Below, piece by piece: positions 2,297 to 64,000 of a stretch of 64,000 nucleotides of DNA. Each line of letters begins with the position of its first letter. The first letter of the stretch is position 1. The notes beneath the pieces were generated by a model. That model did not search any database. It was not told where the DNA came from and was given only the letters and a program-made list of their open reading frames with translations. Source of the stretch: Bugula neritina (taxonomy: Eukaryota; Bryozoa; Gymnolaemata; Cheilostomatida; Bugulidae); assembly GCA_964035545.1 (NCBI GenBank), contig OZ037766.1, forward strand, positions 33,459,773 to 33,523,772, given 5' to 3'. Both the position numbers and the translations under genes were made by a program.

Positions 2297-5200
2297 ATGG
2301 CCAAATGCCCAGACTATGAAGAAGAAATAAATGAAGGCACGGAACTCAACACCGCACCAAAGAAATACAAGTCCTATGGCCAATACAGTGACAAGAAATC
2401 TCTGTTAGTAAGTGAACAGTTACTTTTAGTGAGTACACAGTTCTTTCTAATGAATGAGTGATTTGTTATAAGTGACATACCCGTGACGCATCTGTGACAC
2501 ACCTGTGACACACCTTTGACGTATCTGTGACACACCTGTGACGCATCTGTGACACACCTGTGACACACCTGTGACACACCTGTGACACACCTGTGACACA
2601 ACTGTGACACAACTGTGACTCACAGCAATGTTCCTTTATATTAATCTTGTCTGGTGGTGATCGACCCCATACATAGTCCCGAAAGTTACAACAGGTAATA
2701 TATGTATTTTATGATGTAATTAAATTAATTGTTTGCTGTAACTTTTCAGTACTATTTGACAATCACGCCGTCTAACAAAAAAAATATGTTACACGCTATT
2801 GAAAAATATTGTTGCTTAAGATATTTACATAAACAAGATATATATGTAGAATTGTTATAACACACTCACTAACAGTGGGTAGAACAGATCAAAGGTATGA
2901 ATAACAAAAATATGAAAGCAAAGGTGAAACTTTGATGCTAAATCTGCTGGTACCAGCAGAGACTAGAGAGTGAATGAGTGTATAATATGCTGGCAGGTTT
3001 GAGATAGTTTATACATATATACAAGTACACATACATTACACGTAGGTTACACTAGCAGCTGTGACTTACACATGTACACGTAGGTTACACTAGCTGTTAC
3101 TTACACATGTACACGTAGGTTACATTAGCTGTTACTTACACATGTACACCTAGGTTACACTAGTTGTGGCTTACACATGTACACGTAGGTTACACTAGCT
3201 GTGACTTACACATGTACACGTAGGTTACACTAGCTGTTACTTACACATGTACACGTAGGTTACACTAGCTGCTGTGACTTACACATGTACACGTAGGTTA
3301 CACTAGCAGCTGTGACTTACACATGTACACGTAGGTTACACTAGCAGCTGTGACTTACACATGTACACCTAGGTTACACTAGCTGTTACTTACACATGTA
3401 CACGTAGGTTACACTAGCTGTTACTTACACATGTACACGTAGGTTACACTAGCTGTTACTTACACATGTACACCTAGGTTACACTAGCTGTTACTTACAC
3501 ATGTATACGTAGGTTACACTAGCAGCTGTGACTTACACATGTACACCTAGGTTACACTAGCTGTTACTTACACATGTACACGTAGGTTACACTAGCTGTT
3601 ACTTACACATGTACACCTAGGTTACACTAGCTGTTACCTACACATGTATACGTAGGTTACACTAGCAGCTGTGACTTACACATGTACACCTAGGTTACAC
3701 TAGCTGTTACTTACACATGTACACGTAGGTTACACTAGCTGTTACTTACACATGTACACGTAGGTTACACTAGCTGCTGTGACTTACACATGTACACGTA
3801 GGTTACACTAGCAGCTGTGACTTACACATGTACACGTAGGTTACACTAGCAGCTGTGACTTACACATGTACACCTAGGTTACACTAGCTGTTACTTACAC
3901 ATACATTACACGTAGGTTACACTAGCTGTTACTTACACATACATTACACGTAGGTTACACTAGCTGTTACTTACACATGTACACCTAGGTTACACTAGCT
4001 GTTACTTACACATGTACACGTAGGTTACACTAGCTGTGACTTACACATGTACACAGTATACACGTACAGTAAATATATTTACTCTACTCATAGTATGGAG
4101 AGAAAGACAGAGATGAGGAATTATTTGGTAAAAAAGAGAAAGAGATGCAAGATGCTGGAGACCAGCCAATTACTGCGAAAGTTCTGATTGAGCTTTTACT
4201 TTGCTCTTGCGCTTTTCTTGGCAGAGTAAGAACTATATTATACATTGTACATTATACATATGCAGCATACTATATGTTATAACTGCTAGCACATAAAATA
4301 CATTATACATTATACATATGCATATGCAGCATACTATATGTTGTAGCAGCATACTATATGTAACTGTCTGTGAGTGTATATTATTCTAAGGATATTAATC
4401 TGACTTGTAGGGTTTGTGCCTGAACTCTGTTGGCCCAACCTTGATAGACTTGAGACAAATAGCCTCTCTCACTATATCTCAAGCGGCTTACATCTTTGGA
4501 TCTCAGTCTAGCGGACTTCTTATTGGTTCTATCCTTGCCAAAATCATGCTTCAAGAGTAAGTATATTCAGTCATCTCTCTAGAGTAAGTATACACTGTGT
4601 AGTGTAAGTATACAGTCATCTCTCTAGAGAAAGTATATACAGTAATCTCTCTAGAGTAAGTATATTCAGTCATCTCTCTAGAGTAAGTATATTCAGTCAT
4701 CTCTCTAGAGTAAGTATATTCAGTCATCTCTCTAGAGTAAGTATATTCAGTCATCTCTCTAGAGTAAGCATACAGTCATCTCTCTAGAGTAAGTATATTC
4801 AGTCATCTCTCTAGAGTAAGTATATTCAGTCATCTCTCTAGAGTAAGTATATTCAGTCATCTCTCTAGAGTAAGTATATACAGTCATATCTATAGTGTAA
4901 GTATATACTGTGTAGTGTAAGTATATAGTGTAGTATAAGTATATATAGTATAGTATAAGTATATATAATATATAGTGTAAGTATATATAGTATAGTGTAA
5001 GTATATATAGTATAGTGTAAGTATATATAGTGTAGTATAAGTATATATAGTATAGTGTAAGTATATATAGTATAGTGTAAGTATATATAGTGTAGTGTAA
5101 GTATATATAGTGTAGTGTAAGTATATATAGTGTAGTGTAAGTATATATAGTGTAGTATAAGTATATATAGTGTAGTATAAGTATATATAGTATAGTGTAA

Positions 5201-8200
5201 GTATATATAGTATAGTGTAAGTATATATAGTGTAGTGTAAGTATATATAGTGTAGTGTAAGTATATATAATATAGTGTAAGTATATATAGTATAGTGTAA
5301 GTATATATAGTGTAGTGTAAGTATATATAGTGTAGTGTAAGTATATATAGTATAGTATAAGTAGGCAGTGTGGTGTAAGAATATATAGTATAGTGTAAGT
5401 ATATATAGTGTAGTATAAGTATATATAGTATAGTGTAAGTATATATAGTATAGTTTAAGTATATATAGTGTAGTATAAGCATATATAGTGTAGTATAAGT
5501 ATATATAGTGTAGTATAAGTATATATAGTATAGTATAAGTATATATAGTGTAGTGTAAGTATATATAGTGTAGTATAAGTATATATAGTATAGTATAAGT
5601 ATATATAGTATAGTATAAGTATATATAGTGTAGTGTAAGTATATATAGTGTAGTATAAGTATATATAGTATAGTATAAGTATATATAGTGTAGTGTAAGT
5701 ATATATAGTATAGTGTAAGTATATATAGAAAAGTGTAAGTATATATAGAATAGTGTAAGTATACAGTTAAATTATTTTGTAGGTTCAACACGCAGTTTGC
5801 CCTCGGAATGTGTCTCTTCATCCAAGGATTCTCCACCATGCTGATCCCCGCCTTCCACAGCGCCGTCGTAATGTGCATTATGTTCCTCTTTCAGGGCTTT
5901 GCTATTGGCGTCGTCATTATCGGTGAGTAACTCTTATACTGCCATCTCTATACATTGTCATGTGTTGCAGGTGTCATGTGCTGCAGGTGTCATGTGCTGC
6001 AGGTGTCATGTGTTGCATGTGTCATGTGTTGCAGGTGTCATGTGTTGCAGGTGTCATGTGTTGCAGGTGTCATGTGTTGCAGGTGTCATGTATTGTTGGT
6101 GTCATGTGCTGCAGGTGTCATGTGTTGCAGGTGTCATGTATTTTAGGTGTCATGCGCTGCAGGTGTCATGCGCTGCAGGTGTCATGTGTTGCAGGTGTCA
6201 TGTATTGTAAGTGTCTTGTGTTGTAGGTGTGTGTTCAACTTGTATACGTATTGGGGGGAAGAAAAGAAATGGAATGTTCTTACAGGCAGCTTACTTAGGT
6301 GTGGCTATAGGCAGTGTTTGTGGGCCGTTTGTTGCGCGCCCCTTCCTATCCACTGTAGCCCAGGTAGAAGTAGATGAAGAAGATGAGATAATCAGCTCAT
6401 ACCTAAACAGCCAGTAAGATTGTACTGTACTATATGCTACACTATGTGTTACATATACTACACTATGTGTTACATATACTACACTATGTGTTACATATAC
6501 TACACTATGTGTTACATATACTACACTATGTACTACATATACTACACTATGTACTACACTATATACTACACTATGTGTTACATATACTACACTATGTGTT
6601 ACACATACTACACTATGTGTTACACATACTACACTATGTACTACACTATGTGTTACATATACTACACTATGTATTACATATACTACACTATATACTACAC
6701 TATGTATTACATATACTAGACTATGTACTACATATATACTACACTATGTATTACATATACTACACTATGTATTACATATACTACACTATGTGTTACATAT
6801 ACTACACTATATACTACACTATGTATTACACATACTACACTATGTACTACATATACTACACTGTGTGTTACATATGCTACAGTTAGTGTTACATAAGTTA
6901 TTCTCAAAAAAATGATTGATGAAGTAGTCAGCACTAATGTACAGCTTATGTTACGCATTATTCAACTTATATTACACGTTATTCAACTTATATTACACAT
7001 TATTCAACTTATATTATACACTATTCAACTTATATTATACACTATTCAACTTATATTATACATTATTCAACTTATATTATACACTATTCAACTTATATTA
7101 TACACTATTCAACTTATATTATACACTATTCAACTTATATTATACATTATTCAACTTATATTATACATTATTCAACTTATATTATACACTATTCAACTTA
7201 TATTATACATTATTCAACTTATATTACACATTATTCAACTTATATTATACACTATTCAACTTATATTATACACTATTCAACTTATATTATACACTATTCA
7301 ACTTATATTATACACTATTCAACTTATATTATACATTATTCAACTTATATTATACACTATTCAACTTATATTATACATTATTCAACTTATATTATACACT
7401 ATTCAACTTATATTATACACTATTCAACTTATATTATACATTATTCAACTTATATTATACACTATTCAACTTATATTATACACTATTCAACTTATATTAT
7501 ACACTATTCAACTTATATTATACATTATTCAACTTATATTATACATTATTCAACTTATATTATACATTATTCAACTTATATTATACACTATTCAACTTAT
7601 ATTATACATTATTCAACTTATATTATACACTATTCAACTTATATTACACACTATTCAACTTATATTATACACTATTCAACTTATATTATACATTATCCAA
7701 CTTATATTACACACTATTCAACTTATATTATACACTATTCAACTTATATTATACATTATTCAACTTATATTATACACTATTCAACTTATATTATACATTA
7801 TTCAACTTATATTATACACTATTCAACTTATATTATACACTATTCAACTTATATTATACACTATTCAACTTATATTATACACTATTCAACTTATATTATA
7901 CATTATTCAACTTATATTATACATTATTCAACTTATATTATACACTATTCAACTTATATTACACACTATTCAACTTATATTATACACTATTCAACTTATA
8001 TTATACATTATTCAACTTATATTATACATTATTCAACTTATATTATACACTATTCAACTTATATTATACACTATTCAACTTATATTATACATTATTCAAC
8101 TTATATTATACACTATTCAACTTATATTATACATTATTCAACTTATATTATACACTATTCAACTTATATTACACACTATTCAACTTATATTATACACTAT

Positions 8201-10384
8201 TCAACTTATATTATACATTATCCAACTTATATTACACACTATTCAACTTATATTATACACTATTCAACTTATATTATACATTATTCAACTTATATTATAC
8301 ACTATTCAACTTATATTATACATTATTCAACTTATATTATACATTATTCAACTTATATTATACACTATTCAACTTATATTACACACTATTCAACTTATAT
8401 TATACACTATTCAACTTATATTATACATTATCCAACTTATATTACACACTATTCAACTTATATTATACACTATTCAACTTATATTATACATTATTCAACT
8501 TATATTATACTAATATTATACTTATATAATACATTATTCAACTTATATTATACACTATTCAACTTATATTATACACTATTCAACTTATATTATACACTAT
8601 TCAACTTATATTATACACTATTCAACTTATATTATACACTATTCAACTTATATTATACACTATTCAACTTATATTATACACTATTCAACTTATATTATAC
8701 ACTATTCAACTTATATTATACATTATTCAACTTATATTATACATTATTCAACTTATATTACACATATACCTTGTAGTAGTACAGTAGCACCAAGCGTGTT
8801 TTTGCTAAACCAGTCGGCTCCTCTGAGTCCTGCTCCACTCAACTCAGTTCCGTTGGTGATGGCTTCCGTCTTGACCAGCACAATGACTCCCACCTCCCCG
8901 GGAATTGTCTTCACTCAGACACACGTCAACATCTATTATCTAATCATAGGCATCGTAATCTGCATACCCGCCACCTCTTTCATGGTGCTTTACTGGAAGA
9001 GTGGTAACCCTATCAAAAACCCTAAAGATGACTCCTCAAAGACAGAGTCACTGTCTCTCAACGACTGCACGGCTCCCCTTTCCATTACCATTGCAATGAC
9101 CTTCTTACTCTGTCTCTTTTACTTCGGCATACAGGACTCATACAGTCACCTAGTTACCTCCTTTGCCATTCTTGGTCCTCTCAAGTTCTCCACCTCTCAG
9201 GGTGTATACATTTCTTCATTGTTCTGGTCTTCCATGTGCTTTGGAAGACTTAATGGTAAGACATAAACTATTGATGCTTGGGTATCTCTTTGTGAAGCTT
9301 TTTTACATACATAAATAGGTTAACTGAATGTATTACAGTATATCTGTCTGAGTATCATATGTTAAAGAGTATATCTGTCTGAGTATCATATGTTAAAGAG
9401 TATATCTGTCTGAGTATCATATGTTAAAGAGTATATCTGTCTGAGTATCATATGTTAAAGAGTATATCTGTCTGAGTATCATATGTTAAAGAGTATATCT
9501 GTCTGAGTATCATATGTTAAAGAGTATATCTGTCTGAGTATCATATGTTAAAGAGTATATCTGTCTGAGTATTATATGTTAAAGAGTATATCTGTCTGAG
9601 TATCATATGATAGACTGTGGAGTATAATATCTTCCTACAGGAATCTGGATAGCTAAGATGATAAGCCCTTTCAAGATGCTGTTGATGGACATTTCGGTAG
9701 CATTGATAGCCGGTGCTTTCCTCATGTTCTTTGCCGATAAGTCTGCTGGGGTCTTGTGGGCCTTCACCTCAGTTTTGGGACTCTTCTTTGCAACTATCAA
9801 CGGGGCAGTGGTCGCTTGGGCAGCTAAGCACTTGCCAAGTAAGGGCTGCACTCTTATAGTTGAAATAATAATACAATTGTTTTTGGCTTTTAGCAAAGTT
9901 AAGCTCTCTCATTAAACTTACATAATTTCAAGTTGATTTTTGCTAAATTTATGTTAAAATAACAACCTCGATCATATAAAATATAGCAAAATTATAGTAT
10001 TTCCAACATGCAAACTAAAAGTGTGTGCAGTTGACATTTTCTTTTCCGTTGTTTTTTTTAAATTGCTTTATAAAAGCTTATGAGTCTTGTTGAGCTCTAA
10101 AGACTTGAGAGTTCTAAGCGACTCTAAGCAGTTTATGGTTTATTATTTCAGGTAACAACTACATTCTAGCTATCATAATGGTGGGCAGATGTGCTGGGGC
10201 GCTAGTTCTGCCAACCACTGCCACTACTCTGTTTGAGCACAGTGGTCCAATGGCTCTGATGTACATAGTTTTCACAGTTACTTGCCTCAAGTTGGCTATT
10301 CTTCTTCTCTCCCAGTTTTCTGTCATCAAATATGGCATTGATGGTAAACTATACAGTCGATCAGGGATGATAAATCTAACTTAA
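2297..10384 (+). CDS. MFSD4 / sodium-dependent glucose transporter 1-like MFS transporter (copy A, 8 exons)
   Basis: Predicted 12-helix plasma-membrane transporter of the major facilitator superfamily, closest by motif memory to MFSD4A/MFSD4B (NaGLT1, a sodium-coupled sugar carrier); the substrate here is not proven. Exons by phase tracking: 2297-2407, 4094-4225, 4411-4556, 5783-5922, 6227-6413, 8777-9255, 9641-9838, 10152-10384; 541 codons, intron phases 0,0,2,1,2,1,1, all GT-AG. Residues 1-70 are a charged cytosolic N-terminus. The first helix carries the family sequence LCLNSVGPTLIDLRQ (exon 3), followed by GFAIGVV (exon 4), GSVCGPFVARPF (exon 5), FGIQDSYSHL and SSLFWSSMCFGRL (exon 6), NGAVVAWAAKHLP (exon 7) and NNYILAIIMVGR (exon 8). 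Start ATG at 2297 is the first in frame, with purine at -3. The gene has a sister downstream (13572-25344). Introns 1, 3, 4, 5 and 6 are filled with tandem repeats. Certain as a gene; substrate inferred only from family. Confidence 0.9.
2478..2617. repeat. 11-bp TGTGACACACC array in copy A intron 1
   Basis: About 12 copies of an 11-bp unit shortly after the exon 1 donor at 2408. The rest of the intron to 3020 is unique and AT-rich. Confidence 0.9.
3020..4058. repeat. 35-bp minisatellite, about 28 copies, copy A intron 1
   Basis: Units of 34-39 bp containing TACACATGTACACGTAGG and GGTTACACTAGC. Variants (CGTAGG/CCTAGG, GTTACT/GCAGCTGTGACT) recur in the same order, so groups of units have been copied together. 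The array ends 36 bp before the exon 2 acceptor at 4093. Confidence 0.93.
4557..4890. repeat. 27-bp array made of exon 3 donor copies, copy A intron 3
   Basis: Begins at the true donor of exon 3 (AAGA|GTAAGTAT at 4557). The unit starts with GTAAGTAT and ends TCTCTAGA, so each of about 11 copies carries a donor-like site. It passes directly into the 20-bp family that follows. Confidence 0.93.
4891..5765. repeat. 20-bp GTAAGTATATATAGTGTA array, about 43 copies, copy A intron 3
   Basis: Period 20, with TGTAAGTATAT in nearly every unit, apparently evolved from the GTAAGTAT part of the neighbouring 27-bp unit. A long minus-strand ORF across it is a repeat artefact. Confidence 0.93.
5955..6226. 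repeat. 16-bp array of acceptor-like TTGCAG|GTGTC units, copy A intron 4
   Basis: About 16 copies of CAGGTGTCATGTGTTG. The true acceptor is the last unit in altered form (TTGTAG|GTGTGTG at 6226), so each unit resembles the intron 4 / exon 5 junction. Confidence 0.93.
6423..6893. repeat. 21-bp array (TACTACACTATGTGTTACA), copy A intron 5
   Basis: Starts within about 10 bases of the exon 5 donor (6414). About 22 full or shortened units. Open frames on both strands are artefacts. Confidence 0.92.
6950..8770. repeat. 21-bp array (TTATATTATACACTATTCAA), about 87 copies, copy A intron 5
   Basis: Very homogeneous, with a CATTATT/CACTATT variant pattern and recurring blocks that imply multi-unit copying. 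Ends a few bases before the exon 6 acceptor (8776). Because 21 is a multiple of three it leaves two overlapping frames of about 530 codons open; these are not genes. Confidence 0.95.
9339..9608. repeat. 31-bp array, about 9 copies, copy A intron 6
   Basis: Unit contains GTATATCTGTCTGAGTATC. Nearly identical copies, so recently expanded. Ends about 30 bases before the exon 7 acceptor at 9640. Confidence 0.93.
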
Positions 10385-12225: not shown

Positions 12226-12227
12226 AT

Positions 12228-13571: not shown

Positions 13572-16500
13572 ATGCCTGAATGGAGGCATCTGATTGGTCA
13601 GTTTGTGAGGGAGTCTAATGCAAGTGAAAGAGAGGCTGATCCGGAGACAGCAGAGCTGACTAAGTCAGCACACTACAGCTATGATCAGAAAGAAGACATT
13701 GCGCTGAATATTCAACCCAAGACTTACCAGTCTTATGATCAGGCAGAAGATAACTCCACAAGCACATTTGCAGAGGTTAGATAATTCCACCAATCCTAAC
13801 AGAGCTTAGATAACTCCACAAATATTGTAATAGGGTTAAATAATTCTCATAAAATATTTGAAATGATGTGCTCACAGAAATGCAGCAGTAATTTGGTATT
13901 TATAGTAAGATTCTACCCTTCTTTCCTGTTGATATTAGAAATTTAGCGTATTGAAGCCTTATAGCTAATAAAGTGGTCATGAATTATTGCAGTAATGCTA
14001 TAGTGTGGTGATATGATGTGGTAGTATAATATTATGGTAATATAATAATATGAAAGTGGTGATAATAGGGAAATGTAATTTTGTAGCTATATATAATATT
14101 CAATGCTCATTGGAGGGAAGTTTCATACATTCTCTGCAAACTTTAAATGAGTATTTGAGAGTTATCTCATCCATATAGCTTTTTATATAGTTTTCAAGTG
14201 ACCTTTATTACTCAGGTGTAGGAGTTAGCTGCTCATACCTAACAACACTATAATACATAATAATATAATATAGTATATAATAATATAATATAAAACATAA
14301 TAACATAATATAAAACATAATAATATAATATAGTACATAATAATATAATATAATACATAATAATATAATATAATAATTATAATACATAATAATATAATAT
14401 AATACATAATAACATATAATGCTTCTATAAGCTGCCAGTCAAAGCATTTTTCTAGTGATGGTAGTTTCTGGTTAGAAGTTGGTTTCATGATATTATTGTT
14501 AAGCAACTGGCTTGCTGTTGGTATACAAAGTATTGATTGTGCAGCTGTATTAAGGTGGTAAAGCAGTAGATATTGACTTATATCCAAAAAGCTAAAGCTG
14601 CTACTAGTACACAAATAAACCTATTGCCGAGAACATGCTGGTTTCTAACATTCCAGCAAGCTGTTTAATGCCCAATTGTCCGTTGGAGTTGAAATAGTTA
14701 AATTATTAATATAACGTATGAATTACAGCTGTTAGATGCATGTGAGCAATCGATTGAGCGAATGCGTCTGATTGGCTAGTGGAAATGCCCTTGATGCGTA
14801 TATGAATGCTCATTATTACTATTGATGCACTAATAAAAAGTGGCATTGACACTACAACATATAGTTGATACAATATACTGTAGCGGAGGCTATATAGTGT
14901 TAGTATAATATACACGTGTATTAGTGTATTACATATTTGTTAGCAAGCTGCAAGGGATACCAGTTGCATGTGGATCAATATTGGTTACTGCAAAGTAAAG
15001 CCACTTCCACTAGCAGACTAAGTGGGACTATAGTAGAGCTATACACTGTTGTTGGGACTATACAGTAGAGCTATACACTGTTGTTAGGACTATACAGTAG
15101 AGCTATACACTGCTGTTGGGATTATACAGTAGAGCTATACACTGCTGTTGGGATTATACAGTAGAGCTATACACTGCTGTTGGGACTATAATAAACACCC
15201 GAGTGTATGCTAGGATTCTGGGCTACTGATAGCATTCCAAAACATAAAAGAGACAAATTATCCAGGAAATGGCAGAACAGATCACTGTTGCATCAGCTAT
15301 AGTCAGCAATACCCAGTAGTTGTGTCAGCTATAGTCAGTAGTTGTGTCAGTTATAGTCAGTAGTTGTGTCAGCTATAGTCAGTAGTTGTGTCAGTTATAG
15401 TCAGTAGTTGTGTCAGCTATAGTCAGTAGTTGTGTCAGCTATAGTCAGTAGTTGTGTCAGCTATAGTCAGTAGTTGTGTCAGCTATAGTCAGTAGTTGTG
15501 TCAGCTATAGTCAGTAGTTGTGTCAGCTGTAGTCAGTAGTTGTGTCAGCTGTAGTCAGTAGTTGTGTCAGCTATAGTCAGTAGTTGTGTCAGCTATAGTC
15601 AGTAGTTGTGTCAGCTATAGTCAGTAGTTGTGTCAGCTATAGTCAGTAGTTGTGTCAGCTATAGTCAGTAGTTGTGTCAGCTATAGTCAGTAGTTGTGTC
15701 AGCTATAGTCAGTAGTTGTGTCAGCTATAGTCAGTAGTTGTGTCAGCTATAGTCAGTAGTTGTGTCAGCTATACTCAGTAGTTGTGTCAGCTGTAGTCAG
15801 TTTCCTTAATAATGGTCAACCGGCACTCAGTAGAAAGATTCAGTAGATTTGGCCACGTAATCAGACTGGACTCTCCTCCTCTGCTTGAGGTGAGAATTTA
15901 GAAACTTTACAGTAGCTAGTAGAATATATTATATTACATTATGTGTTATAATATATATATTATATTACATACTGTAATGTAATATATTCTATATATTATA
16001 TTACAGTATGTAATATAATATATATATAATATATTATATTGCAGTATGTAATATAATATATAGAATATATTACATTACAGTATGTAATATAATATATAGA
16101 ATATATTACATTACAGTATGTAATATAATATATAGAATATATTACATTACAGTATGTAATATAATATATGGAATATATTACATTACAGTATGTAATATAA
16201 TACATTGAATATATTGTATTACAGTATGTAATATAATATATTCTATATAATATATTATAGTATGTAATATAATATATTCTATATAATATATTACAGTATG
16301 TAATATAATATATAGAATATATTATATTACAGTGTGTAATATAATATATAGAATATATTATTGTATCACAGTATGTATTGAGAGACTATTCAACTTCATC
16401 AATCAACTTCCACAATCGTGTAAAGGAAATGATTAGGCAGTTATTGACAAAGAATTGTATGTTTGCTTGTTTATTGGGTCATTATGACTATTTGAAGAAA

Positions 16501-19500
16501 TACTGCAGCCTATCTCAACCTTAGCAAATCGCAAGCTAGCTACTGTGCTTGTATGCTGGGTAGTGTATAGTGTGTACTGTGTAGTGTGTACTGTATAGTG
16601 TGTACTGTATAGTGTGTAGTGTGTACTGTGTAGTGTGCAGTGTGTACTGTGTACTGTGTAGTGTGTACTGTGCTTGTATACTGTATAGTGTGTACTGTGT
16701 AGTGTGTACTGTGTAGTGTGTAGTGTGTAGTGTGTACTGTGTAGTGTGTACTGTGCAGTGTGTAGTGTATACTGTGTAGTGTATACTGTGTAGTGTATAC
16801 TGTATACTGTGTAGTGTATACTGTGTAGCGTATACTGTGTAGTGTATACTGTGTATACTGTGTAGTGTATACTGTGCTTGTATACTGTATAGTGTGTACT
16901 GTGTAGTGTGTACTGTGTAGTGTGTAGTGTGTACTGTGTAGTGTGTACTGGGCAGTGTGTAGTGTATACTGTGTACTGTGTAGTGTATACTGTGTACTGT
17001 GTAGTGTATACTGTGTAGTGTGTACTGTGTAGTGTGTAGTGTGTACTGTGTAGTGTGCACTGTGCAGTGTGTAGTGTATACTGTGTACTGTGTAGTGTGT
17101 ACTGTGCAGTGTGTAGTGTGTACTGTGTACTGTGTAGTGTGTACTGTGTAGTGTATACTGTGTAGTGTGTAGTGTATACTGTGTAGTGTATATTGTATAG
17201 TGTATACTGTGTAGTGTATACTGTGTAGTGTATATTGTATAGTGTATACTGTGTAGTGTATACTGTGTAGTGTATATTGTATAGTGTATACTGTGTAGTG
17301 TATACTGTGTAGTGTATATTGTATAGTGTATACTGTGTAGTGTGTACTGTGTAGTGTGTAGTGTATACTGTGTAGTGTGTACTGTGCAGTGTGTAGTGTA
17401 TACTGTGTACTGTGTAGTGTATACTGTGTAGTGTATACTGTGTAGTGTATACTGTGTAGTGTGTAGTGTATACTGTGTAGTGTGTACTGTGCAGTGTGTA
17501 GTGTATACTGTGTACTGTGTAGTGTATACTGTGTAGTGTATACTGTGTAGTGTATACTGTGTAGTGTGTACTGTGTAGTGTGTAGTGTGTACTGTGTAGT
17601 GTGTAGTATGTACTGTGTAGTGTATACTGTGTAGTGTGTACTGTGTAGTGTGTACTGTGTAGTGTGTACTGTGTAGTGTATACTGTGTACTGTGTAGTGT
17701 GTATTGTGTAGTGTATACTGTGTAGTATGTACTGTGTAGTGTATACTGTGTAGTGTGTACTGTGTAGTGTATACTGTGTACTGTGTAGTGTGTACTGTGT
17801 AGTGTATACTGTGTAGTATGTACTGTGTAGTGTATACTGTGTAGTGTGTACTGTGTAGTGTATACTGTGTAGTATGTACTGTGTAGTGTATACTGTGCAG
17901 TGTGTAGTGTATACTGTGTACTGTGTAGTGTATACTGTATATTTCTCAAAGGTTTCAGTTTTTAGCATCACCAGTTCGACTGAACAATTGTCATATCTTG
18001 TAAAATTGTTTCTATTGCAACTTTATCAGAATAGGGTGAGATCAGCCTTCCATCATTTCCAAAATGACTTTAAGCGTTATCAGTCAACAACTTGAGTGTG
18101 CCAGTATAAAATGTGCAACGTGTGACTATGTGGCTGTGTGACTATGTGACTGTGTTACTGTGTGACTGTGTGACTGTGTGACTATGTGACTGTGTGACTA
18201 TGTGACTATGTGACTATGTGACTATGTGGCTGTGTGACTGTGTGGCTGTGTGACTGTGTGACTGCGTGACTATGTGACTGCATAACTGTGTGTGATGGAG
18301 TTGATATCTAAGCAAGTGTGAAATAACATAATATTATTTAGCTGAACTTGAAAGACATTGCATAACATCAAATGACCACAGGTGAGCAGATTGAGGTAAT
18401 GTGCAGTTGTTTTACCACCTTCTACATTATATAACAATCCAGCAGTAAGTATATTATAGATTGTTGAGAACATTTACTAGCTAAAATTCGGCTCATTATC
18501 TTAACAGCAACATTAGCTGAAAATACTGCTGGTAGATTTTGGTCATGTGACCGCAGAGTTAGTAGAATACACACAGCTAGTGTACACGTATGTAGTAAGT
18601 GTATTGTATACATACTCTGGGACAAGCTCGTCACGTGTACAACTCACGCAGGTAAAAGGAAGAGGATGTGATCAATCAATGCTAGAAGAGTGTTGCATTG
18701 TGGGTACATCTCATCTACCACAACACATCTCCGAATAACTTCCTTAAATATTAATCAATTCAAAGAATTTGTTTAAAGATGACACGTGGAACCATATTAA
18801 TAGATTATGTATGTTTTGCAACAGACAATTAACTAATAGGGTGACAAATCTTTCTTATATGTAAATACCTGTTGAGTATAGTATATACCTGTTGAGTATA
18901 CTATATACCTGTTGAGTATAGTATATACCTGTTGAGTATAGTATATACCTGTTGAGTATACTATATACCTGTTGAGTATAGTATATACCTGTTGAGTATA
19001 CCATATACCTGTTGAGTATACTATATACCTGTTGAGTATGCTATATACCTGTTAAGTATACCATATACCTGTTGAGATGTATATTTATTTGCGTGGTTGA
19101 GAAATTCTCTGTCAGTAACCTTTGTAGAGTGGAATGACCTAAGTGTCAATCGCTTGTGAAAGTATATTAAACTGAAACTTAATTTGATCACATTGCGTTG
19201 TAGTATAATGTAGCTGTAGAGTTACTGTTCAAAAAATAGTGGATGCTCTTTATCATATTGTTATGTCATGAACAATTTTCCTTTACTATCACTACAAGTG
19301 TTCTCTAATTGTAAAGAGAATAAAAATAAGTAATACTTTGCGTGGAGAGTGCTGTAGATATGCTTGGCAATGTGAACTTAATACATGCATTATCATAGAA
19401 TAAGGTTAAAGACAGTTGTATTATTACAGAATGAGGTAAAGGACAGTTGTATTATAACAGAATGAGGTAAAGGACAGTTGTATTATTACAGAATGAGGTA

Positions 19501-29000: not shown

Positions 29001-30241
29001 ACACTGACACATATTATATAACACTGACACATATTATATAACACTGACTCATTATCTGACACTGACACATATTATATAACACTGACTCATATTATATAAC
29101 ACTGACTCATATTATCTAACACTGACACATATTATATAACACTGACACGTATTATCTAACACTGACACATATTATATAACACTGACACATATCATATAAC
29201 ACTGACACATAGTATATAACACTGACACATAGTATATAACACTGACACATATTATATAACACTGACACATATTATATAACACTGACACATATTATATAAC
29301 ACTGACACATATTATATGACACTGACACATATTATATAACACTGACACATATTATATAACACTGACTCATATTATCTAACACTGACACATATTATATAAC
29401 ACTGACACGTATTATCTAACACTGACACATATTATATAACACTGACACACATTATATAACACTGACTCATGTTATATAACACTGACACATATTATATAAC
29501 ACTGACTCATATTATCTAACACTGACACATATTATATAACACTGACACATATTATGCAACACTGACTTACTCTAGATTCAAATGCTACATGGTATAAAAG
29601 AGGCAGCTAAAGGAGGAGACAGTGTCTTAGTTGATGGTATAAAAGCTGCCAATGTATTGAGGGAGAAACATCCAGAATATTACAAGATACTCACAGAAAC
29701 AAACAACCGCGCAGATGGTGTGATCGCTTACAGAGACCGGCCTCAATTTTATCACACCAACAGCTGTCCGATCATCAATCTAAACGAAGATGGAGAACCA
29801 GAGTATATAAGATGGTCCAACCCCTCTCACAGCACCTTCTTTGGAGGGACAGCGGAAGAGTATGAACAATTCATCATGGCCTTTAAGCAGTTTTACAAAA
29901 TTCTCTATGACTGCGCAATTACAGTGAAAATTAAACCAGGTAAATAATTTTTAGTATTACTTGTATTTATAATGTAGTTTATTCAATTTATATGTTATAT
30001 ACAGCACAGTATGTGAGTAATATTCACTCAGCATATATGTGATAATATGTTACTATATGATGTGACATTATACATGCTTATTCTCACAGGCTATATTTTG
30101 GCCTTTGACAACAAGAGAGTAATGCATGGCAGGCTAGCCTTCGATCCTAATGAGCAGAGAGAACTTGAACTGTGGTACGTGGATTGGGACGCCCTGTACT
30201 CTACACTAAGAGTAAAAACCATCAATAATAACCTCCCCTAG
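26002..30241 (+). CDS. Gamma-butyrobetaine dioxygenase-like Fe(II)/2-oxoglutarate hydroxylase (7 exons)
   Basis: Family member of gamma-butyrobetaine dioxygenase (last step of carnitine synthesis) and trimethyllysine dioxygenase. Exons: 26002-26157, 26395-26535, 27086-27271, 27820-27965, 28505-28610, 29576-29939, 30090-30241; 416 codons against 387 in human BBOX1. The N-terminal zinc domain shows [15 protein letters not shown] with Cys65, Cys67, Cys70 in the C-x-C-x-x-C spacing, and His112 in DDHTSTY as likely fourth ligand. The double-stranded beta-helix holds the iron site His234-x-Asp236 (LHIDD) and distal His379 (RVMHGR); Arg390 is the likely 2-oxoglutarate anchor. The ending [12 protein letters not shown] favours BBOX over TMLHE. 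Residues 32-48 are a Ser/Gly-rich stretch not expected in the family. All catalytic residues are present, so an active enzyme is likely; the exact substrate is inferred. No mitochondrial presequence is obvious. Confidence 0.92.
26560..27070. repeat. 24/21-bp array (GCTAGGTGATGATGTCATAC), about 22 copies, dioxygenase intron 2
   Basis: Each unit has TAG|GTGATG and the near-palindrome GATGATGTCATACTATAGC. Starts about 25 bases after donor 26536 and ends 15 bases before the exon 3 acceptor. Confidence 0.93.
27293..27795. repeat. 22-bp array (GAGTAAGGTACTGTACACTA), about 23 copies, dioxygenase intron 3
   Basis: Each unit contains AAG|GTACTG, donor-like, and the palindrome GTACTGTAC-type core. Three- to five-unit blocks recur. 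Confidence 0.93.
27965..28370. repeat. 21-bp TATGAGTATATACATATATA array, dioxygenase intron 4
   Basis: The first unit is the exon 4 end itself: CATTATGG|GTAATATG is followed by TATGAGTATATACATA repeats. About 17 units, then AT-only sequence to the acceptor at 28504. Confidence 0.88.
28660..29560. repeat. 20-bp array (CACTGACACATATTATATAA), about 45 copies, dioxygenase intron 5
   Basis: Each unit holds ACTGAC, a good match to the branch-point consensus. The last unit (AACACTGACTTACTCTAG at 29575) supplies the likely real branch point and acceptor. Confidence 0.94.
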
Positions 30242-46400: not shown

Positions 46401-48994
46401 TGACACTAGAATAAGGTGATGAGATATAATGTATAATGTTTGTTTTCAGATCAATAGCCAGACTTGCTAATGTAAGTGCTGAGGCTTTGGGGGAGGCTGC
46501 CAGGACTACCCTTCCTTCTATTGAACATCCTGCTGAATGGAAACTTGCTAAGTTTATTCTCAGATTTCCCCAGGTGATTGCATATCATGTACTACCCTAC
46601 CCTACCCCCTACCTAACCCCTTACTCTACCACCTACCCCCTACCCTACCCCCTACCTAACCCCTACCCCTTACCCTACACTATACTCTATACTACACTAC
46701 TCTATACTACTCTATACTACTCTATAGTCTATACTACTCTATACTACTCTATAGTCTATACTACTCTATACTACTCTATAGTCTATACTACTCTATAGTC
46801 TATACTACTCTATACTCTATACTACTCTATAGTCTATACTACTCTATAGTCTATACTACTCTATAGTCTATACTACTCTACTCTTACTACTCTACTCTAT
46901 ACTACTCTATACTACTGTACTCTATACTCTATACTACTCTACTCTATACTACTCTACTCTACTCTACTCTACTCTACTCTACTCTACTCTACTCTATACT
47001 ACTCTACTCTATACTACTCTACTCTTACTACTCTACTCTATACTACTCTATACTACTGTACTCTATACTCTATACTACTCTACTCTATACTACTCTACTC
47101 TACTCTACTCTACTCTACTCTACTCTACTCTACTCTACTCTACTCTATACTACTCTACTCTATACTACTCTACTCTATACTACTCTACTCTACTCTACTG
47201 TAGGTGATAGCCCAGGTAACAGCTGAAATGTGTCTACACTTCCTGTGCGAGTATCTCTACGACTTGTCCCGGGCTTACACCGAGTTCTACGACAACTGTT
47301 ATTGCGTAGAGAAAGACAGAGTTACTGGTTAGTTGTGTTATATTATATTATATTATATTATACTGGTTAGTTGTGTTATATTATATTATATTATATTATA
47401 CTGGTTAGTTGTGTTATATTATATTATATTATATTATACTGGTTAGTTGTGTTATATTATATTATATTATATTATACTGGTTAGTTGTGTTATATTATAC
47501 TGGTTAGTTGTGTTATATTATATTATATTATATTATACTGGTTAGTTGTGTTATATTATATTATATTATATTATACTGGTTAGTTGTGTTATATTATATT
47601 ATATTATATTATACTGGTTAGTTGTGTTATATTATATTATATTATATTATACTGGTTAGTTGTGTTATATTATATTATATTATATTATACTGGTTAGTTG
47701 TGGTATATTATATTATATTATATTATACTGGTTAGTTGTGTTATATTATATTATATTATATTATACTGGTTAGTTGTGTTATATTATATTATATTATATT
47801 ATACTGGTTAGTTGTGTTATATTATATTATATTATACTGGTTAGTTGTGTTATATTATATTATATTATACTGGTTAGTTGTGTTATATTATATTATATTA
47901 TATTATACTGGTTAGTTGTGTTATATTATATTATATTATATTATACTGGTTAGTTGTGTTATATTATATTATATTATATTATATTATATTATATTATACT
48001 GGTTAGTTGTGTTATATTATATTATATTATATTATACTGGTTAGTTGTGTTATATTATATTATATTATATTATATTATATTATACTGGTTAGTTGTGTTA
48101 TATTATATTATATTATATTATACTGGTTAGTTGTGTTATATTATATTATATTATATTATACTGGTTAGTTGTGTTATATTATATTATATTATATTATACT
48201 GGTTAGTTGTGTTATATTATATTATATTATATTATACTGGTTAGTTGTGTTATATTATATTATATTATATTATATTATACTGGTTAGTTGTGTTATATTA
48301 TATTATATTATATTATATTATACTGGTTAGTTGTGTTATATTATATTATATTATATTATATTATACTGGTTAGTTGTGTTATATTATATTATATTATATT
48401 ATATTATACTGGTTAGTTATATTATATTATATTATATTATATTATATTATACTGGTTAGTTGTGTTATATTATATTATATTATATTATACTGGTTAGTTG
48501 TGTTATATTATATTATATTATATTATACTGGTTAGTTGTGTTATATTATATTATACTGGTTAGTTGTGTTATATTATATTATACTGGTTAGTTGTGTTAT
48601 ATTATATTATATTATATTATATTATACTGGTTAGTTGTGTTATATTATATTATACTGTTTAGTTGTGTTATATTATATTATACTGGTTAGTTATATTATA
48701 TTATATTATATTATACTGGTTAGTTGGACATTCTTGTTAGTTTTCAGTATTCTACTCTGTATATGTTATAGTATATGTTGTATTATATGTTATAGTATAT
48801 GTTATAGTATATATTATTGTATGTCTTATAGTATATATTATTGTATTTCTTATAGTATATTTAACAGTATATACATTATTTCAGGGGAGATAATCAAAGT
48901 GAATACTGGAAGATTGTTACTTTGTGAGGGAACTGCCAATGTGATGGCAAAATCTTTTAGCATATTGGGACTGCAGCCTGTCTCTAAGATGTAG
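31402..48994 (+). CDS. RARS1: Arginyl-tRNA synthetase, cytoplasmic (15 exons)
   Basis: Charges tRNA-Arg with arginine using ATP in the cytosol; in animals part of the multisynthetase complex through its N-terminal coiled coil. Exons: 31402-31455, 32796-32957, 33760-33966, 37733-37822, 38771-38949, 39585-39768, 40191-40320, 40425-40529, 41629-41807, 42383-42598, 44817-44930, 46042-46100, 46450-46573, 47204-47327, 48885-48994; 678 codons (human 660). Residues about 18-72 form a leucine-rich coiled coil. The class I signature is MHVGHLR (HVGH 226-229), followed by [13 protein letters not shown]. The KMSK loop is replaced by KFKTRSGDT near 469-477, as in animal enzymes. Exons 11-15 code for the DALR anticodon-binding domain ending QPVSKM. 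Unusual splice sites: intron 5 begins GC (AG|GCAAGT at 38950), and exons 3, 7 and 11 follow AAG acceptors. Exon 8 uses the second of two nearby TAGs (40424), which restores EFQKIYD. Introns make up about 88% of the gene and are nearly all tandem repeats. Confidence 0.96.
31456..32390. other. Synthetase intron 1, proximal part
   Basis: AT-rich, with a degenerate ATTAGT/ATTACT simple-sequence tract at about 31630-31930. Similar TAGTAATAGTAA tracts occur inside the insertion at 34419-37661. No exon seen. Confidence 0.5.
32392..32750. repeat. 18-bp array (GGGATATACACCAAGTTA), about 20 copies, synthetase intron 1
   Basis: Open on both strands because 18 is a multiple of three. Ends 45 bases before the exon 2 acceptor at 32795. 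Confidence 0.94.
32962..33759. repeat. 29-bp array filling synthetase intron 2, about 27 copies
   Basis: Unit contains TGTGTAGTATACTGAGTAG. It begins within a few bases of the donor (AGG|GTAGATAG at 32958), and its last unit, altered to GTGTGTATTAAG, is the functional acceptor of exon 3. Confidence 0.94.
33967..34418. repeat. 21-bp array (TGTAATATATACCCTAGTGTG), left part, synthetase intron 3
   Basis: Starts at the donor CAG|GTAGCTGTAATATA. About 21 units with CCC/CTC/TTT variants. Interrupted by the 3.24 kb element and continued at 37662. Confidence 0.93.
34419..37661. mobile_element. 3.24 kb DNA-transposon-like insertion with terminal inverted repeats
   Basis: Unique AT-rich sequence splits the 21-bp array of synthetase intron 3; the same repeat resumes on the far side at 37662. 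The left end 34419-34447 and the reverse complement of the right end 37633-37661 agree at 23 of 29 positions; both begin GTGACC and share ACAAAAC and GGGATGT. Both flanks read TATAT/ATATA, so a target duplication of TA or ATAT is possible but cannot be fixed within the repeat. No intact transposase is visible, only a remnant at 35434-35586, so it is probably non-autonomous. Superfamily not assigned. Confidence 0.72.
35434..35586 (-). pseudogene. Short coding-like remnant inside the 3.24 kb insertion
   Basis: About 50 open codons on the minus strand, ending in a stop at 35434-35436, read as ordinary protein (for example [15 protein letters not shown]) rather than simple repeat. It lies inside the element at 34419-37661 and could be a relic of a transposase or of a captured exon. 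I do not recognise the family and found no start codon or continuation. Confidence 0.3.
37662..37732. repeat. 21-bp array, right part after insertion, synthetase intron 3
   Basis: Three to four further units of the array seen at 33967-34418, running into the exon 4 acceptor ATATGCAG at 37732. Confidence 0.9.
37804..38750. repeat. 46-bp array copying the last 19 bases of exon 4 plus its donor, synthetase intron 4
   Basis: The exon 4 end (ATGACACCATTGCTAAG|GT at 37823) recurs every 46 bases, about 20 times, with few changes, followed by ACTCTTCTCTATATGATATA. Every unit is exon fragment plus donor. Reading past the true donor meets TAA within about six codons. Confidence 0.96.
38972..39584. repeat. 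25-bp array of joined acceptor-donor units, synthetase intron 5 (GC-AG)
   Basis: About 24 units of GTAACTATTATGTAATAATA plus TACAG; each junction reads TACAG|GTAACT. The true acceptor is the last unit (ATATGCAG|GTCAAC, 39584). Confidence 0.95.
39782..40175. repeat. 21-bp array (TGTTAGTATTGACATGTCAT), about 19 copies, synthetase intron 6
   Basis: Contains the palindrome TGACATGTCA in each unit. Ends about 15 bases before the AAG acceptor of exon 7. Confidence 0.94.
40530..41605. repeat. 11-bp array (GTCAGTATACA), about 97 copies, synthetase intron 8
   Basis: The donor of exon 8 is GGAG|GTCAGTATG, and GTCAGTAT is the core of the unit, so nearly every 11 bases repeat the donor sequence. ATA/ACA/GGA variants form larger recurring blocks. 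Confidence 0.95.
41815..42375. repeat. 41/44-bp array, about 13 copies, synthetase intron 9
   Basis: Unit contains CTACAG|AATATCTATACTC; the CTACAG element resembles an acceptor and the true one is TATACAG at 42382. Two unit lengths alternate. Confidence 0.92.
42605..44780. repeat. 23-bp array (CTCTGTAATATAATATATTG), about 94 copies, synthetase intron 10
   Basis: Starts six bases after the donor AAG|GTGTATATTGTACC (42599) and runs almost to the acceptor. Single-base variants (GTACC, GTAAC, GCACC, AGTACC) recur as blocks. Long minus-strand frames up to 643 codons are artefacts. Confidence 0.96.
44935..45990. repeat. Nested GATAT / ACTGATGATACTATGAT array, synthetase intron 11
   Basis: Units of about 22, 27 and 32 bp differ by insertion of GATAT pentamers, a clear step-wise length series. 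Starts at the donor AAG|GTATTGATATGATA (44931). Confidence 0.93.
46090..46410. repeat. 45-bp array copying the last 11 bases of exon 12 plus its donor, synthetase intron 12
   Basis: ACTAGAATAAG|GTAAGTGTA at the exon 12 end (46101) recurs every 45 bases, seven times, with a perfect or near-perfect GTAAGT donor each time. The following TAA in frame makes any later copy unproductive. Confidence 0.95.
46590..47203. repeat. CTACTCTATA pyrimidine-rich array, synthetase intron 13
   Basis: Pentamer and decamer repeats of TACTC/TATACTACTC, C/T-rich on the transcript strand, running straight into the acceptor CTACTGTAG (47203) and so giving a 600-base polypyrimidine tract. Two long blocks are duplicated. 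Confidence 0.93.
47321..48720. repeat. About 36-bp array copying ACTG|GTTAGTTG donor of exon 14, synthetase intron 14
   Basis: The exon 14 junction TTACTG|GTTAGTTGTG (47328) recurs about 37 times as ATACTG|GTTAGTTGTG, separated by a variable number of TTATA pentamers. Confidence 0.95.
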
Positions 48995-49100
48995 CACTGT
49001 ATAGTTACACTGGTAGATGTAGCACTGCATAGTTACACTGGTAGATGTAGCACTGCATAGTTACACTGGTAGATGTAGCACTGCATAGTTACACTGTTTA
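48988..49100. repeat. 28-bp array duplicating the synthetase stop codon junction
   Basis: The last codons and stop (AGATGTAG ending 48994) are repeated four times every 28 bases as TAGATGTAGCACTGCATAG, in the 3' UTR. The first TAG ends the protein. Confidence 0.92.
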
Positions 49101-51650: not shown

Positions 51651-51696
51651 ATACTGACAACTGTTACTAATTCTAGTAGAAACTACAACCACCCTA

Positions 51697-61932
<10,236 letters not shown>

Positions 61933-61936
61933 GTGA

Positions 61937-64000
61937 GCTCTTTCTATAGTATTCTGTAGACGCAGTGTTATAATAAGTTCTCTCTTTCTATAGTATTCTG
62001 TAGACGCAGTGTTATAACAAGTTCTCTCTTTCTATAGTATTCTGTAGACACAGTGTTATAATAAGTTCTCTCTTTCTATAGTATTCTGTAGACACAGTGT
62101 TATAATAAGTTCTCTCTTTCTATAGTATTCTGTAGACGCAGTGTTATAACAAGTTCTCTCTTTCTATAGTATTCTGTAGACACAGTGTTATAACAAGTTC
62201 TCTCTTTCTATAGTATTCTGTAGACACAGTGTTATAACAAGTTCTCTCTTTCTATAGTATTCTGTAGACGCAGTGTTATAATAAGTTCTCTCTTTCTATA
62301 GTATTCTGTAGACGCAGTGTTATAATAAGTTCTCTCTTTCTATAGTATTCTGTAGACACAGTGTTATAATAAGCTCTCTCTTTCTATAGTATTCTGTAGA
62401 CACAGTGTTATAACAAGTTCTCTCTTTCTATAGTATTCTGTAGACACAGTGTTATAACAAGTTCTCTCTTTCTATAGTATTCTGTAGACGCAGTGTTATA
62501 ATAAGTTCTCTCTTTCTATAGTATTCTGTAGACGCAGTGTTATAATAAGTTCTCTCTTTCTATAGTATTCTGTAGACGCAGTGTTATAATAAGTTCTCTC
62601 TTTCTATAGTATTCTGTAGACGCAGTGTTATAATAAGCTCTCTCTTTCTATAGTATTCTGTAGACACAGTGTTATAACAAGTTCTCTCTTTCTATAGTAT
62701 TCTGTAGACACAGTGTTATAATAAGTTCTCTCTTTCTATAGTATTCTGTAGACGCAGTGTTATAATAAGTTCTCTCTTTCTATATTATTCTGTAGACACA
62801 GTGTTATAATAAGCTCTCTCTCCCTATAGTATTCTGTAGACACAGTGTTATAATAAGTTCTTTCTATAGTATTCTGTAGACACAGTGTTATAATAAGTTC
62901 TCTCTTTCTATAGTATTCTGTAGACGCAGTGTTATAATAAGCTCTCTCTTTCTATAGTATTCTGTAGACACAGTGTTACAATAAGCTCTCTCTTTCTATA
63001 GTATTCTGTAGACGCAGTGTTATGATAAGTTCTCTCTTTCTATAGTATTCTGTAGACGCAGTTTTATAATAAGCTCTCTCTCCCTATAGTATTCTGTAGA
63101 CACAGTGTTATAATAAGTTCTTTCTATAGTATTCTGTAGACACAGTGTTATAATAAGTTCTCTCTTTCTATAGTATTCTGTAGACACAGTGTTATAATAA
63201 GTTCTCTCTTTCTATAGTATTCTGTAGACACAGTGTTATAATAAGTTCTTTCTATAGTATTCTGTAGACACAGTGTTATAATAAGTTCTCTCTTTCTATA
63301 GTATTCTGTAGACGCAGTGTTATAATAAACTCTCTCTTTCTATAGTATTCTGTAGACACAGTGTTATAATAAGTTCTTTCTATAGTATTCTGTAGACGCA
63401 GTTTTATAATAAGCTCTCTCTTTCTATAGTATTCTGTAGACACAGTGTTATAATAAGTTCTCTCTTTCTATAGTATTCTGTAGACGCAGTGTTATAATAA
63501 GTTCTCTCTTTCTATAGTATTCTGTAGACACAGTGTTATAATAAGCTCTCTCTCCCTATAGTATTCTGTAGACACAGTGTTATAATAAGTTCTTTCTATA
63601 GTATTCTGTAGACACAGTGTTATAATAAGTTCTCTCTTTCTATAGTATTCTGTAGACGCAGTGTTATAATAAGCTCTCTCTTTCTGTAGTATTCTGTAGA
63701 CACAGTGTTATAATAAGTTCTCTCTCTATAGTATTCTGTAGACACAGTGTTATAATAAGTTCTCTCTTTCTATAGTATTCTGTAGACGCAGTGTTATAAT
63801 AAGCTCTCTCTTTCTATAGTATTCTGTAGACGCAGTGTTATAATAAGCTCTCTCTTTCTATAGTATTCTGTAGACGCAGTGTTATAATAAGTTCTCTCTT
63901 TCTATAGTATTCTGTAGACGCAGTGTTATAATAAGCTCTCTCTTTCTATAGTATTATGTAGACACAGTGTTATAATAAGTTCTCTCTTTCTATAGTATTC
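61937..64000. repeat. 44-bp array with TCTCTCTTTCTATAG acceptor-like sites, about 47 copies to window end
   Basis: Starts four bases after the donor CAT|GTGAGC (61933) and runs to the window edge. Each unit has a full polypyrimidine tract and TATAG, a strong 3' splice site on paper. The next olfactomedin exon must lie beyond 64000. Confidence 0.96.

What the first reader, a model, noticed from the sequence alone, without database searches (positions are those of the whole stretch)
2297..64000. Introns are built from private tandem arrays seeded at splice junctions
In at least a dozen introns the repeat unit contains the adjacent true donor or acceptor, often with 4-23 exonic bases, and the array starts or ends at that exon. 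Seen for donors at 4557, 19654, 24823, 37823, 40530, 46101, 47328, 58031 and 61531, for acceptors at 6226, 19491, 39584 and 57830, and for the stop codon at 48994. Each intron has its own sequence. This suggests a recurring local process: duplication across the exon edge followed by amplification that lengthens introns. I know of no named system matching this at such density.
Basis: partly seen in the sequence, partly recalled or inferred. Interest (0 to 1): 0.88.

Follow-up and report, generated by a model that had tools for sequence, protein, structure and literature searches.

The report
Chromosome-end introns rewritten by tandem repeats
Near the chromosome ends of what looks like an animal genome, almost every intron in this window has turned into its own short tandem repeat, often carrying a sliver of the neighbouring exon; this resembles the intron 'stuttering' recently described in birds, here in AT-rich DNA, and chance placement in short introns may explain the link to exon edges.

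Summary
Five genes were rebuilt (41 introns). Arrays occur in 38 of 41 introns and fill 77% of intron DNA. Eleven donors and five acceptors lie inside an array. Array edges lie within 30 bp of 31 of 41 donors, against 2.8 expected.

(1) It is a chromosome-end property: the window lies 52-116 kb from a contig end; arrays fill a median 50% of 18 near-end stretches (C1-C7) and 3% of 21 interior ones. (2) Junction seeding is not needed if introns were short: with arrays collapsed to one unit, introns have median 77 nt, and random placement predicts 8.2 donor crossings (9 seen) and 8.2 acceptor crossings (5 seen). Two stop codons are crossed too. (3) Introns are not clearly longer than interior ones (median 635 against 512, p=0.20). 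(4) A named precedent exists: 'sequence stuttering' of chicken dot chromosomes (PMC12954441).

New here: AT-rich units (GC 0.29), chromosome ends, and private units sharing one composition (AA/TT 0.36 of expectation; AAA 0.08 and GTA 3.1 times interior).

The parts
2297..10384 (+). Gene A, MFS transporter (MFSD4-like, name recalled), 8 coding exons, 7 introns
13572..25344 (+). Gene B, paralog of A, 8 exons, same phases in 7 of 7 introns, positions exact in 5 of 7
26002..30241 (+). Gene C, gamma-butyrobetaine-dioxygenase-like, 7 exons
31402..48994 (+). Gene D, RARS1, 15 exons; GC-AG intron at 38950; stop TAG 48992-48994
51697..61949 (+). Gene E, olfactomedin-domain gene, 8 exons; only residues 258-435 supported by homology
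2401..2446 (+). two-copy 21-bp array over donor 2408 (7 exonic nt)
4554..4906 (+). 27-bp array over donor 4557 (3 exonic nt), followed by a related 20-bp array 4893-5763
5956..6230 (+). 16-bp array ending over acceptor 6226 (4 exonic nt)
13748..13821 (+). 2.5-copy 29-bp array over donor 13776 (28 exonic nt)
19389..19508 (+). 31-bp array over acceptor 19491 (17 exonic nt)
19645..20110 (+). 29-bp array over donor 19654 (9 exonic nt)
24820..25064 (+). 33-bp array over donor 24823 (3 exonic nt)
37804..38752 (+). 46-bp array, 20.6 copies, over donor 37823 of RARS1 (19 exonic nt)
38971..39593 (+). 25-bp array ending over acceptor 39584 (9 exonic nt)
40542..41611 (+). 11-bp array starting 12 nt after the start of the intron at 40530; the unit repeats the donor motif, no exonic array bases
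44924..45995 (+). 27-bp array over donor 44931 (7 exonic nt)
46090..46417 (+). 45-bp array over donor 46101 (11 exonic nt)
47323..48654 (+). 38-bp array over donor 47328 (5 exonic nt)
48987..49096 (+). 28-bp array over the RARS1 stop codon (8 coding nt): a coding edge that is not a splice site
56604..57834 (+). 25-bp array ending over acceptor 57830 (4 exonic nt, near chance)
58006..59327 (+). array over donor 58031 (25 exonic nt), mixed 24/36/60-bp units
61520..61817 (+). 39-bp array over donor 61531 (11 exonic nt)
61938..64000 (+). 44-bp array over the stop codon of gene E (12 coding nt), runs off the window

Best explanation
The window is a subtelomere in which short tandem duplications arise and turn over at a very high rate (minisatellite growth). 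Shown: arrays concentrate near chromosome ends; units are local and private; arrays fill introns nearly from edge to edge but hardly touch coding sequence; the non-array remainder plus one unit has median 77 nt per intron. Inferred: a duplication in a short intron often overlaps the exon edge by geometry alone. It is tolerated because the outermost copy of the donor, acceptor or stop codon still works, so the exon bases are carried along. Repeated expansion and loss then replaces intron DNA until only exons and minimal splice signals remain unique. The driver is most likely chromosome-end recombination or break repair (inferred, not measured). It also prefers or retains sequence without A/T runs, which is why private units share one composition.
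For: Position: window at C2:33,459,773-33,523,772 of 33,575,671 bases. 16 of 18 stretches within 250 kb of contig ends have array fraction >=0.2 (median 0.498), 1 of 21 interior stretches does (median 0.028), p=1.3e-5; at the C2 end it is 0.19, 0.32 and 0.12 at 305, 505 and 1005 kb. 12 interior myosin introns: 2 of 12 with arrays, 8.8% of bases. Geometry: uniform seeding in the collapsed intron predicts 8.2 and 8.2 crossings against 9 donors and 5 acceptors; mean unit centre 0.44 against 0.50, P=0.21, in 29 one-block introns. Not splice-specific: two of five stop codons lie in arrays. Introns older than arrays: 5 of 7 intron positions coincide exactly between A and B, arrays do not. Replication at other ends: AMP deaminase, L034. 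Composition: AA+TT 286 against 796 expected, 119 of 121 units below expectation; unique stretches of the same introns 0.93; 119 of 121 artificial arrays recovered by TRF, 0.91.
Against: The geometric argument needs introns to have been compact when seeded; interior introns have median 512 nt, and with such lengths 9 donor crossings exceed expectation (2.85, P=0.0025). Array starts within 13 nt of donors are slightly above the uniform model (14 against 9.6, P=0.055). AGGT[AG] occurs in 9 of 55 intronic units on the sense strand and in 3 antisense. In crossing units the exonic parts are also AA/TT-poor (0.65 against 0.53 in the intronic parts), so the carried-along idea rests on GTA/TAC and ATA/TAT only. 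No recombination map, reads, RNA or second individual. Sample points were picked by hand. Two near-end points have few arrays: C5 end 60 kb and C2 end 30 kb.
Confidence: 0.66

Rival explanations
1. Junction seeding: breaks or slippage are specifically provoked at exon-intron edges (for example by transcription, R-loops or splicing), so arrays start there.
For: Array edges at 31 of 41 donors within 30 bp; excess over interior-length introns, P=0.0025; 4 of 4 array-bearing AMP deaminase donors within 9 nt; AGGT[AG] 9 sense against 3 antisense of 55 intronic units.
Against: No clear excess over uniform seeding in the collapsed introns; stop codons crossed; half of the non-genic bases in the window are also arrays; GTAAG nearly strand-symmetric in units (6 sense, 4 antisense of 55).
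Confidence: 0.17
2. Selection boundary only: arrays grow anywhere, and array edges sit at exons because selection removes growth beyond the minimal splice signals. Seeds need not be near the edge.
For: Unique remainder is short on both sides (38 introns, 5' median about 11.5 nt, 3' about 21.5 nt, read from the lists), coding array fraction 3.2%, same edges at two stop codons.
Against: Does not by itself explain units containing up to 28 exonic bases, which need a duplication spanning the edge.
Confidence: 0.12
3. Intron gain by tandem duplication of AGGT-bearing exon segments, later amplified.
For: Exon bases with splice sites are duplicated, as in the Rogers/Hellsten model (passages of PMC4974935).
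Against: 5 of 7 intron positions coincide exactly in paralogs A and B while the arrays are not shared. Only B intron 1 is crossed at both ends, by two different units.
Confidence: 0.02
4. Assembly artefact: the assembler or basecaller invented or distorted the arrays.
For: C2 tips look like a nanopore-type miscall (TTTTAAA next to TTTGGGG; the miscall is recalled), so arrays may be less well polished.
Against: Copies differ, flanking exons are intact and in frame, the consensus of the 37804 array keeps its AAA and AA, and arrays occur near an end of each of seven contigs.
Confidence: 0.03

Closest known systems
Sequence stuttering / exon stuttering of avian dot chromosomes (Hron et al. 2026, PMC12954441)
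   Same: Introns filled with local tandem expansions confined between exons; a subset copies the exon edge with its donor or acceptor; special chromosomal compartment; intergenic DNA also affected.
   Different: There: GC-rich, dot microchromosomes, blocks of tens to hundreds of bases, 190 of 5,572 dot introns with detectable exon copies, length variation between individuals shown. Here: AT-rich (unit GC 0.29), ends of large contigs, median unit 21 bp, 15 of 41 introns with an array reaching 3-28 nt into coding bases, animal probably outside vertebrates (inferred, no name given), no population data.
Subtelomeric VNTR enrichment in human (PMC7608644)
   Same: Minisatellites concentrated toward chromosome ends, including introns.
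   Different: Human: VNTR structural variants enriched 7.1-fold in the last 5 Mb, GC-rich long units. Here: median array fraction 0.498 against 0.028 within 250 kb, AT-rich, nearly every intron of the window.
[quoted passage not shown]
   Same: Tandem duplication across a splice motif that leaves the protein unchanged.
   Different: Here at least five introns existed before; the duplication rewrites an intron and does not create one.
AT-rich minisatellites of rare fragile sites FRA16B/FRA10B (recalled; one search was a search listing only)
   Same: AT-rich units of tens of bases that expand.
   Different: Single human loci; no junction involvement known to me; units here show no overall hairpin excess.

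Membership tests
Sequence stuttering (Hron et al. 2026) | Intron repetitiveness by local tandem expansions | tested here: met
   38 of 41 introns, 77.1% of bases; paired introns of A and B share no 12-mer in 7 of 7 pairs
Sequence stuttering (Hron et al. 2026) | Occasional involvement of exon-edge fragments with splice sites | tested here: met
   11 donors and 5 acceptors of 41 each; RARS1 junctions supported by alignment
Sequence stuttering (Hron et al. 2026) | Extensive intron-length variation within the species | not testable with these tools
   one assembly, no reads
Sequence stuttering (Hron et al. 2026) | GC-rich setting (an association in the paper, not part of its three main features) | tested here: not met
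   median unit GC 0.29 over 127 arrays
Sequence stuttering (Hron et al. 2026) | Concentrated in a special chromosomal compartment | tested here: met
   chromosome ends in place of dot chromosomes
Subtelomeric VNTRs | Array density higher near chromosome ends | tested here: met
   16 of 18 near-end stretches against 1 of 21 interior at >=0.2
Subtelomeric VNTRs | Copy-number polymorphism | not testable with these tools
   no second haplotype
Intron gain by tandem duplication | Intron absent before the duplication | tested here: not met
   5 exact shared positions in A and B; 2 further positions lie 3-4 columns apart in poorly alignable stretches; the 27 introns of C, D and E not tested
Intron gain by tandem duplication | Both splice sites come from one duplicated segment | tested here: not met
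   only B intron 1 of 41 is crossed at both ends, by different units

The most novel reading that the evidence does not exclude
A sequence-selective amplifier acts at the chromosome ends of this genome. Independent, private arrays are drawn from or driven toward one narrow composition (AA/TT at 0.36 of expectation, AAA/TTT at 0.08 and GTA/TAC at 3.1 times interior; AGTATA in 44 of 121 units against 4 in random segments), unlike the unique DNA beside them. Exon bases mainly ride along with the selected intronic part. Intron stuttering would then be a general, independently evolved chromosome-compartment instability that does not need GC-richness or G4, with a substrate rule that can be tested.
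Probability: 0.35. Interest if true: 0.78.

Novelty: new variant of a known kind. Interest (0 to 1): 0.62.

Why it matters
The bird paper tied intron stuttering to GC-rich dot chromosomes and offered replication stress (with G4) or meiotic repair as possible causes. The same anatomy in AT-rich DNA at chromosome ends argues against GC or G4 as a requirement and points to the compartment, where recombination or end-linked replication may be unusual. It gives a second, very dense system in which exon-edge duplication can be counted, and a simple null model (random seeding in compact introns) that bears on any claim of junction targeting. The shared unit composition is a new clue to what makes DNA expand.

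Tried and rejected
Hairpin drive: units fold no better than dinucleotide shuffles (mean z -0.06, 121 arrays, 7.4% at rank <=0.05) or GC-matched interior concatemers (p=0.19), although 16 of 121 fall in the lowest 5% of the latter. Donor-derived vocabulary: the composition is close to strand-symmetric, TAC 82 against GTA 61 on the sense strand of 52 intronic units. Composition as a result of ageing: AA/TT depletion does not change with copy number (Spearman -0.13, p=0.11). Nested microsatellite origin: 13-16 of 121 units have excess self-repeats at p<=0.05, too few to explain the rest. Polarity of decay: 16 arrays, first copy 0.039, middle 0.056, last-but-one 0.097 from consensus, p=0.05 and 0.07: suggestive only. 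Higher-order repeats: 9 of 43 blocks have a multiple-period row, at least 3 of them better read as a sub-period. A codon-only exon finder found 27 of 46 exons with 14 other hits, so interior introns were taken from Pfam myosin matches. Rfam found nothing at gathering scores in the window or L033. A guess that the species is a bryozoan led to one paper search (15 of 3,029 listed), which gave nothing usable.

Corrections made on re-check: one search had used 86 of the 90 myosin rows on animal contigs (42 introns, median 568); one search used all 90 (43 introns, median 512, null P=0.0025 in place of 0.0014). Four of the 94 rows, on ciliate-like contigs, were left out of both. An alignment of A and B showed exact intron positions in 5 of 7, not 7 of 7.
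Full report
Place. The window is G000:C2:33,459,773-33,523,772 of a 33,575,671-base contig, 52-116 kb from its end. The 215.8 Mb genome has 295 contigs; C1 to C7 are 35.6 to 15.8 Mb long. The proteins are animal-like (RARS1, AMP deaminase 2, olfactomedin; inference); the tools give no species name.

Gene models. I joined exons by splice signals, phase and homology. Genes A and B are MFS transporters (MFSD4-like is recalled; Pfam gives MFS_1 for A) with the same intron phases in 7 of 7. In their alignment 5 of 7 intron positions coincide exactly; the other two lie in poorly alignable stretches 3-4 columns apart (positions counted by hand). C matches gamma-butyrobetaine dioxygenase over residues 51-408. 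D matches cytoplasmic arginine-tRNA ligase 4r3z_B over residues 14-678 with every exon junction continuous, including a GC-AG intron at 38950; short gaps occur only in the variable N-terminal region. E carries an OLF domain, and its first exons have no homology support. In total there are 46 coding exons and 41 introns.

The observation. TRF arrays cover 77.1% of intron bases, 3.2% of coding bases and 50.6% of the rest. 38 of 41 introns have arrays; the array-free ones are 150, 185 and 313 nt. Eleven arrays run into the upstream exon by 3-28 nt and five into the downstream exon by 4-24 nt, in 15 introns together. Two of five stop codons lie in arrays. Circular shifts of the exons give a mean of 2.8 junctions of 41 with an array edge within 30 bp (maximum 9); 31 donors and 23 acceptors are seen. 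The exon-edge test is clear for donors (6 of 41 at rank <=0.05; p=0.015, 0.0016, 0.0022 against 12, 24, 36 nt deeper) and mixed for acceptors (2 of 41; p=0.45, 0.08, 0.003).

Chromosome ends. Interior stretches have almost no arrays. Of 18 stretches within 250 kb of ends of C1-C7, 16 have array fraction >=0.2 (median 0.498). Of 21 interior stretches, 1 does (a satellite; median 0.028); two of the 21 are myosin genes that I chose. Left out of this count: L009 (all N), the two C2 tips, the window itself, and four points at 305-1005 kb. The points were chosen by hand at round distances. C5 start, C5 end, C6 start, C6 end and C7 start were sampled by a single point each, and C7 end not at all. The fall with distance was measured at the C2 end only: 0.19, 0.32 and 0.12 at 305, 505 and 1005 kb. 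The 400 kb point on the other arm (0.0) holds an integrase-like frame of Gypsy type, read by eye with no family search, and tells nothing. Two near-end points have few arrays: C5 end at 60 kb (0.009) and C2 end at 30 kb (0.056). In 12 interior myosin introns, whose edges are approximate, 2 have arrays, 8.8% of bases. One of these, in L043, begins at or near the exon edge, so the process is rare and not absent inside.

Replication. On the other arm of C2 at 150 kb an AMP deaminase gene (gap-free to AMP deaminase 2, 26xc_A, over residues 3-332) has five introns, the last one cut by the locus end. Four carry arrays, starting 1, 0, 9 and 4 nt after the start of the intron; the other is 109 nt and array-free. 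At the start of C1 an array begins with CAG and the donor GTTAGT at the end of a long open frame (L034).

Is the junction special? Collapsing every array to one unit leaves introns of median 77 nt. If a unit falls anywhere in such an intron, 8.2 donor and 8.2 acceptor crossings of at least 4 nt are expected over 59 array blocks; 9 and 5 are seen. In the 29 introns with one block, 7.1 are expected and 5 and 4 seen. Unit position in those 29 is not skewed (mean 0.44 against 0.50, P=0.21), and array starts within 13 nt of donors are 14 against 9.6, P=0.055. If introns had interior lengths (median 512 nt from 43 myosin introns), 2.85 would be expected; 9 donors has P=0.0025 and 5 acceptors P=0.15. 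So the verdict rests on short introns at seeding. The short remainder on both sides, the array-free introns of 109-313 nt and the crossed stop codons favour that reading; the interior lengths do not. Fewer acceptor crossings fit the longer signal upstream of acceptors (established knowledge).

Local origin and age. Paired introns of A and B share no 12-mer in 7 of 7 pairs, so arrays came after gene duplication while at least five introns are older. In RARS1 intron 3 a 3.2 kb element with inverted ends interrupts one array, with the same unit on both sides.

Shared composition. 127 arrays (at least 3 copies, units 8-120 bp) from the window, the near-end stretches and its points at 305-1005 kb have median unit 21 bp and GC 0.29; 32 interior arrays are shorter (median 75 bp). 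In 121 units of 12 bp or more AA+TT is 286 against 796 expected, and 119 of 121 are below expectation. AAA/TTT is 0.08 and GTA/TAC 3.07 times interior. Units holding AAA or TTT: 17 of 121 against about 86 for random segments (10 of 62 in the window, 7 of 59 elsewhere). The effect is similar outside genes (10 arrays, 0.42), in interior arrays (26, 0.38) and on both strands; it is milder in 9 junction-crossing arrays (0.57). Unique stretches of the same introns are normal (0.93), and artificial arrays pass TRF unchanged (119 of 121 recovered, 0.91). In 14 of the 16 crossing units (the two with 3 exonic nt left out) the exonic parts hold fewer GTA/TAC (3 of 152 trinucleotides against 20 of 243) and ATA/TAT (7 against 47); ACT/AGT does not differ (7 against 12), and AA+TT hardly does (0.65 against 0.53). 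Most of the hexamer excess follows from dinucleotides; GAGTATA remains at 17 against 4.2 in shuffles. I cannot tell whether this is a rule for starting or for keeping arrays.

Known kinds. Hron et al. 2026 (PMC12954441; [quoted passage not shown] They report it in birds and, as data not shown, in GC-rich gerbil genes. The human subtelomere paper (PMC7608644, passages) supplies the chromosome-end parallel. Searches for 'sequence stuttering' (10 of 484 listed), for intron tandem repeats (20 of 111), for subtelomeric VNTRs with introns (15 of 83) and for invertebrate subtelomeric repeats (all 7) listed no title on an invertebrate case of this kind; only an open-licence library was searched.

Verdict. 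A real, striking, chromosome-end phenomenon that works like sequence stuttering; full membership waits for length variation between individuals.

Noticed in passing
34419-37661: 3.2 kb element with GTGACC...GGTCAC inverted ends inside the array of RARS1 intron 3; the same array unit lies on both sides.
   Followed up: partly
L022 and L030 (tips of C2): Both tips carry TTTGGGG repeats in telomere orientation, capped by TTTTAAA repeats; an unusual telomere-like unit for an animal, the cap perhaps a nanopore miscall (recalled).
   Followed up: no
G000 contigs C90, C114, C115: Long myosin matches with many TAA and TAG but no TGA read through: probably ciliate contigs in the assembly.
   Followed up: no
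L033 (C2:400001-404000): GC 0.56 stretch with an integrase-like frame, read by eye as a Gypsy-type LTR retroelement.
   Followed up: partly
L043 (reverse complement 1302-1377): 13-bp array at or near an exon edge of a myosin gene about 4.7 Mb from the end of C1: the same process in the interior.
   Followed up: partly
12674-13313: 31-bp array with AGAGTAAGTA upstream of gene B exon 1, possibly the donor of an unannotated 5' exon.
   Followed up: no
L008 (C2:18000001-18010000): A 20-bp satellite fills the whole 10 kb stretch (507 copies), perhaps centromeric.
   Followed up: no
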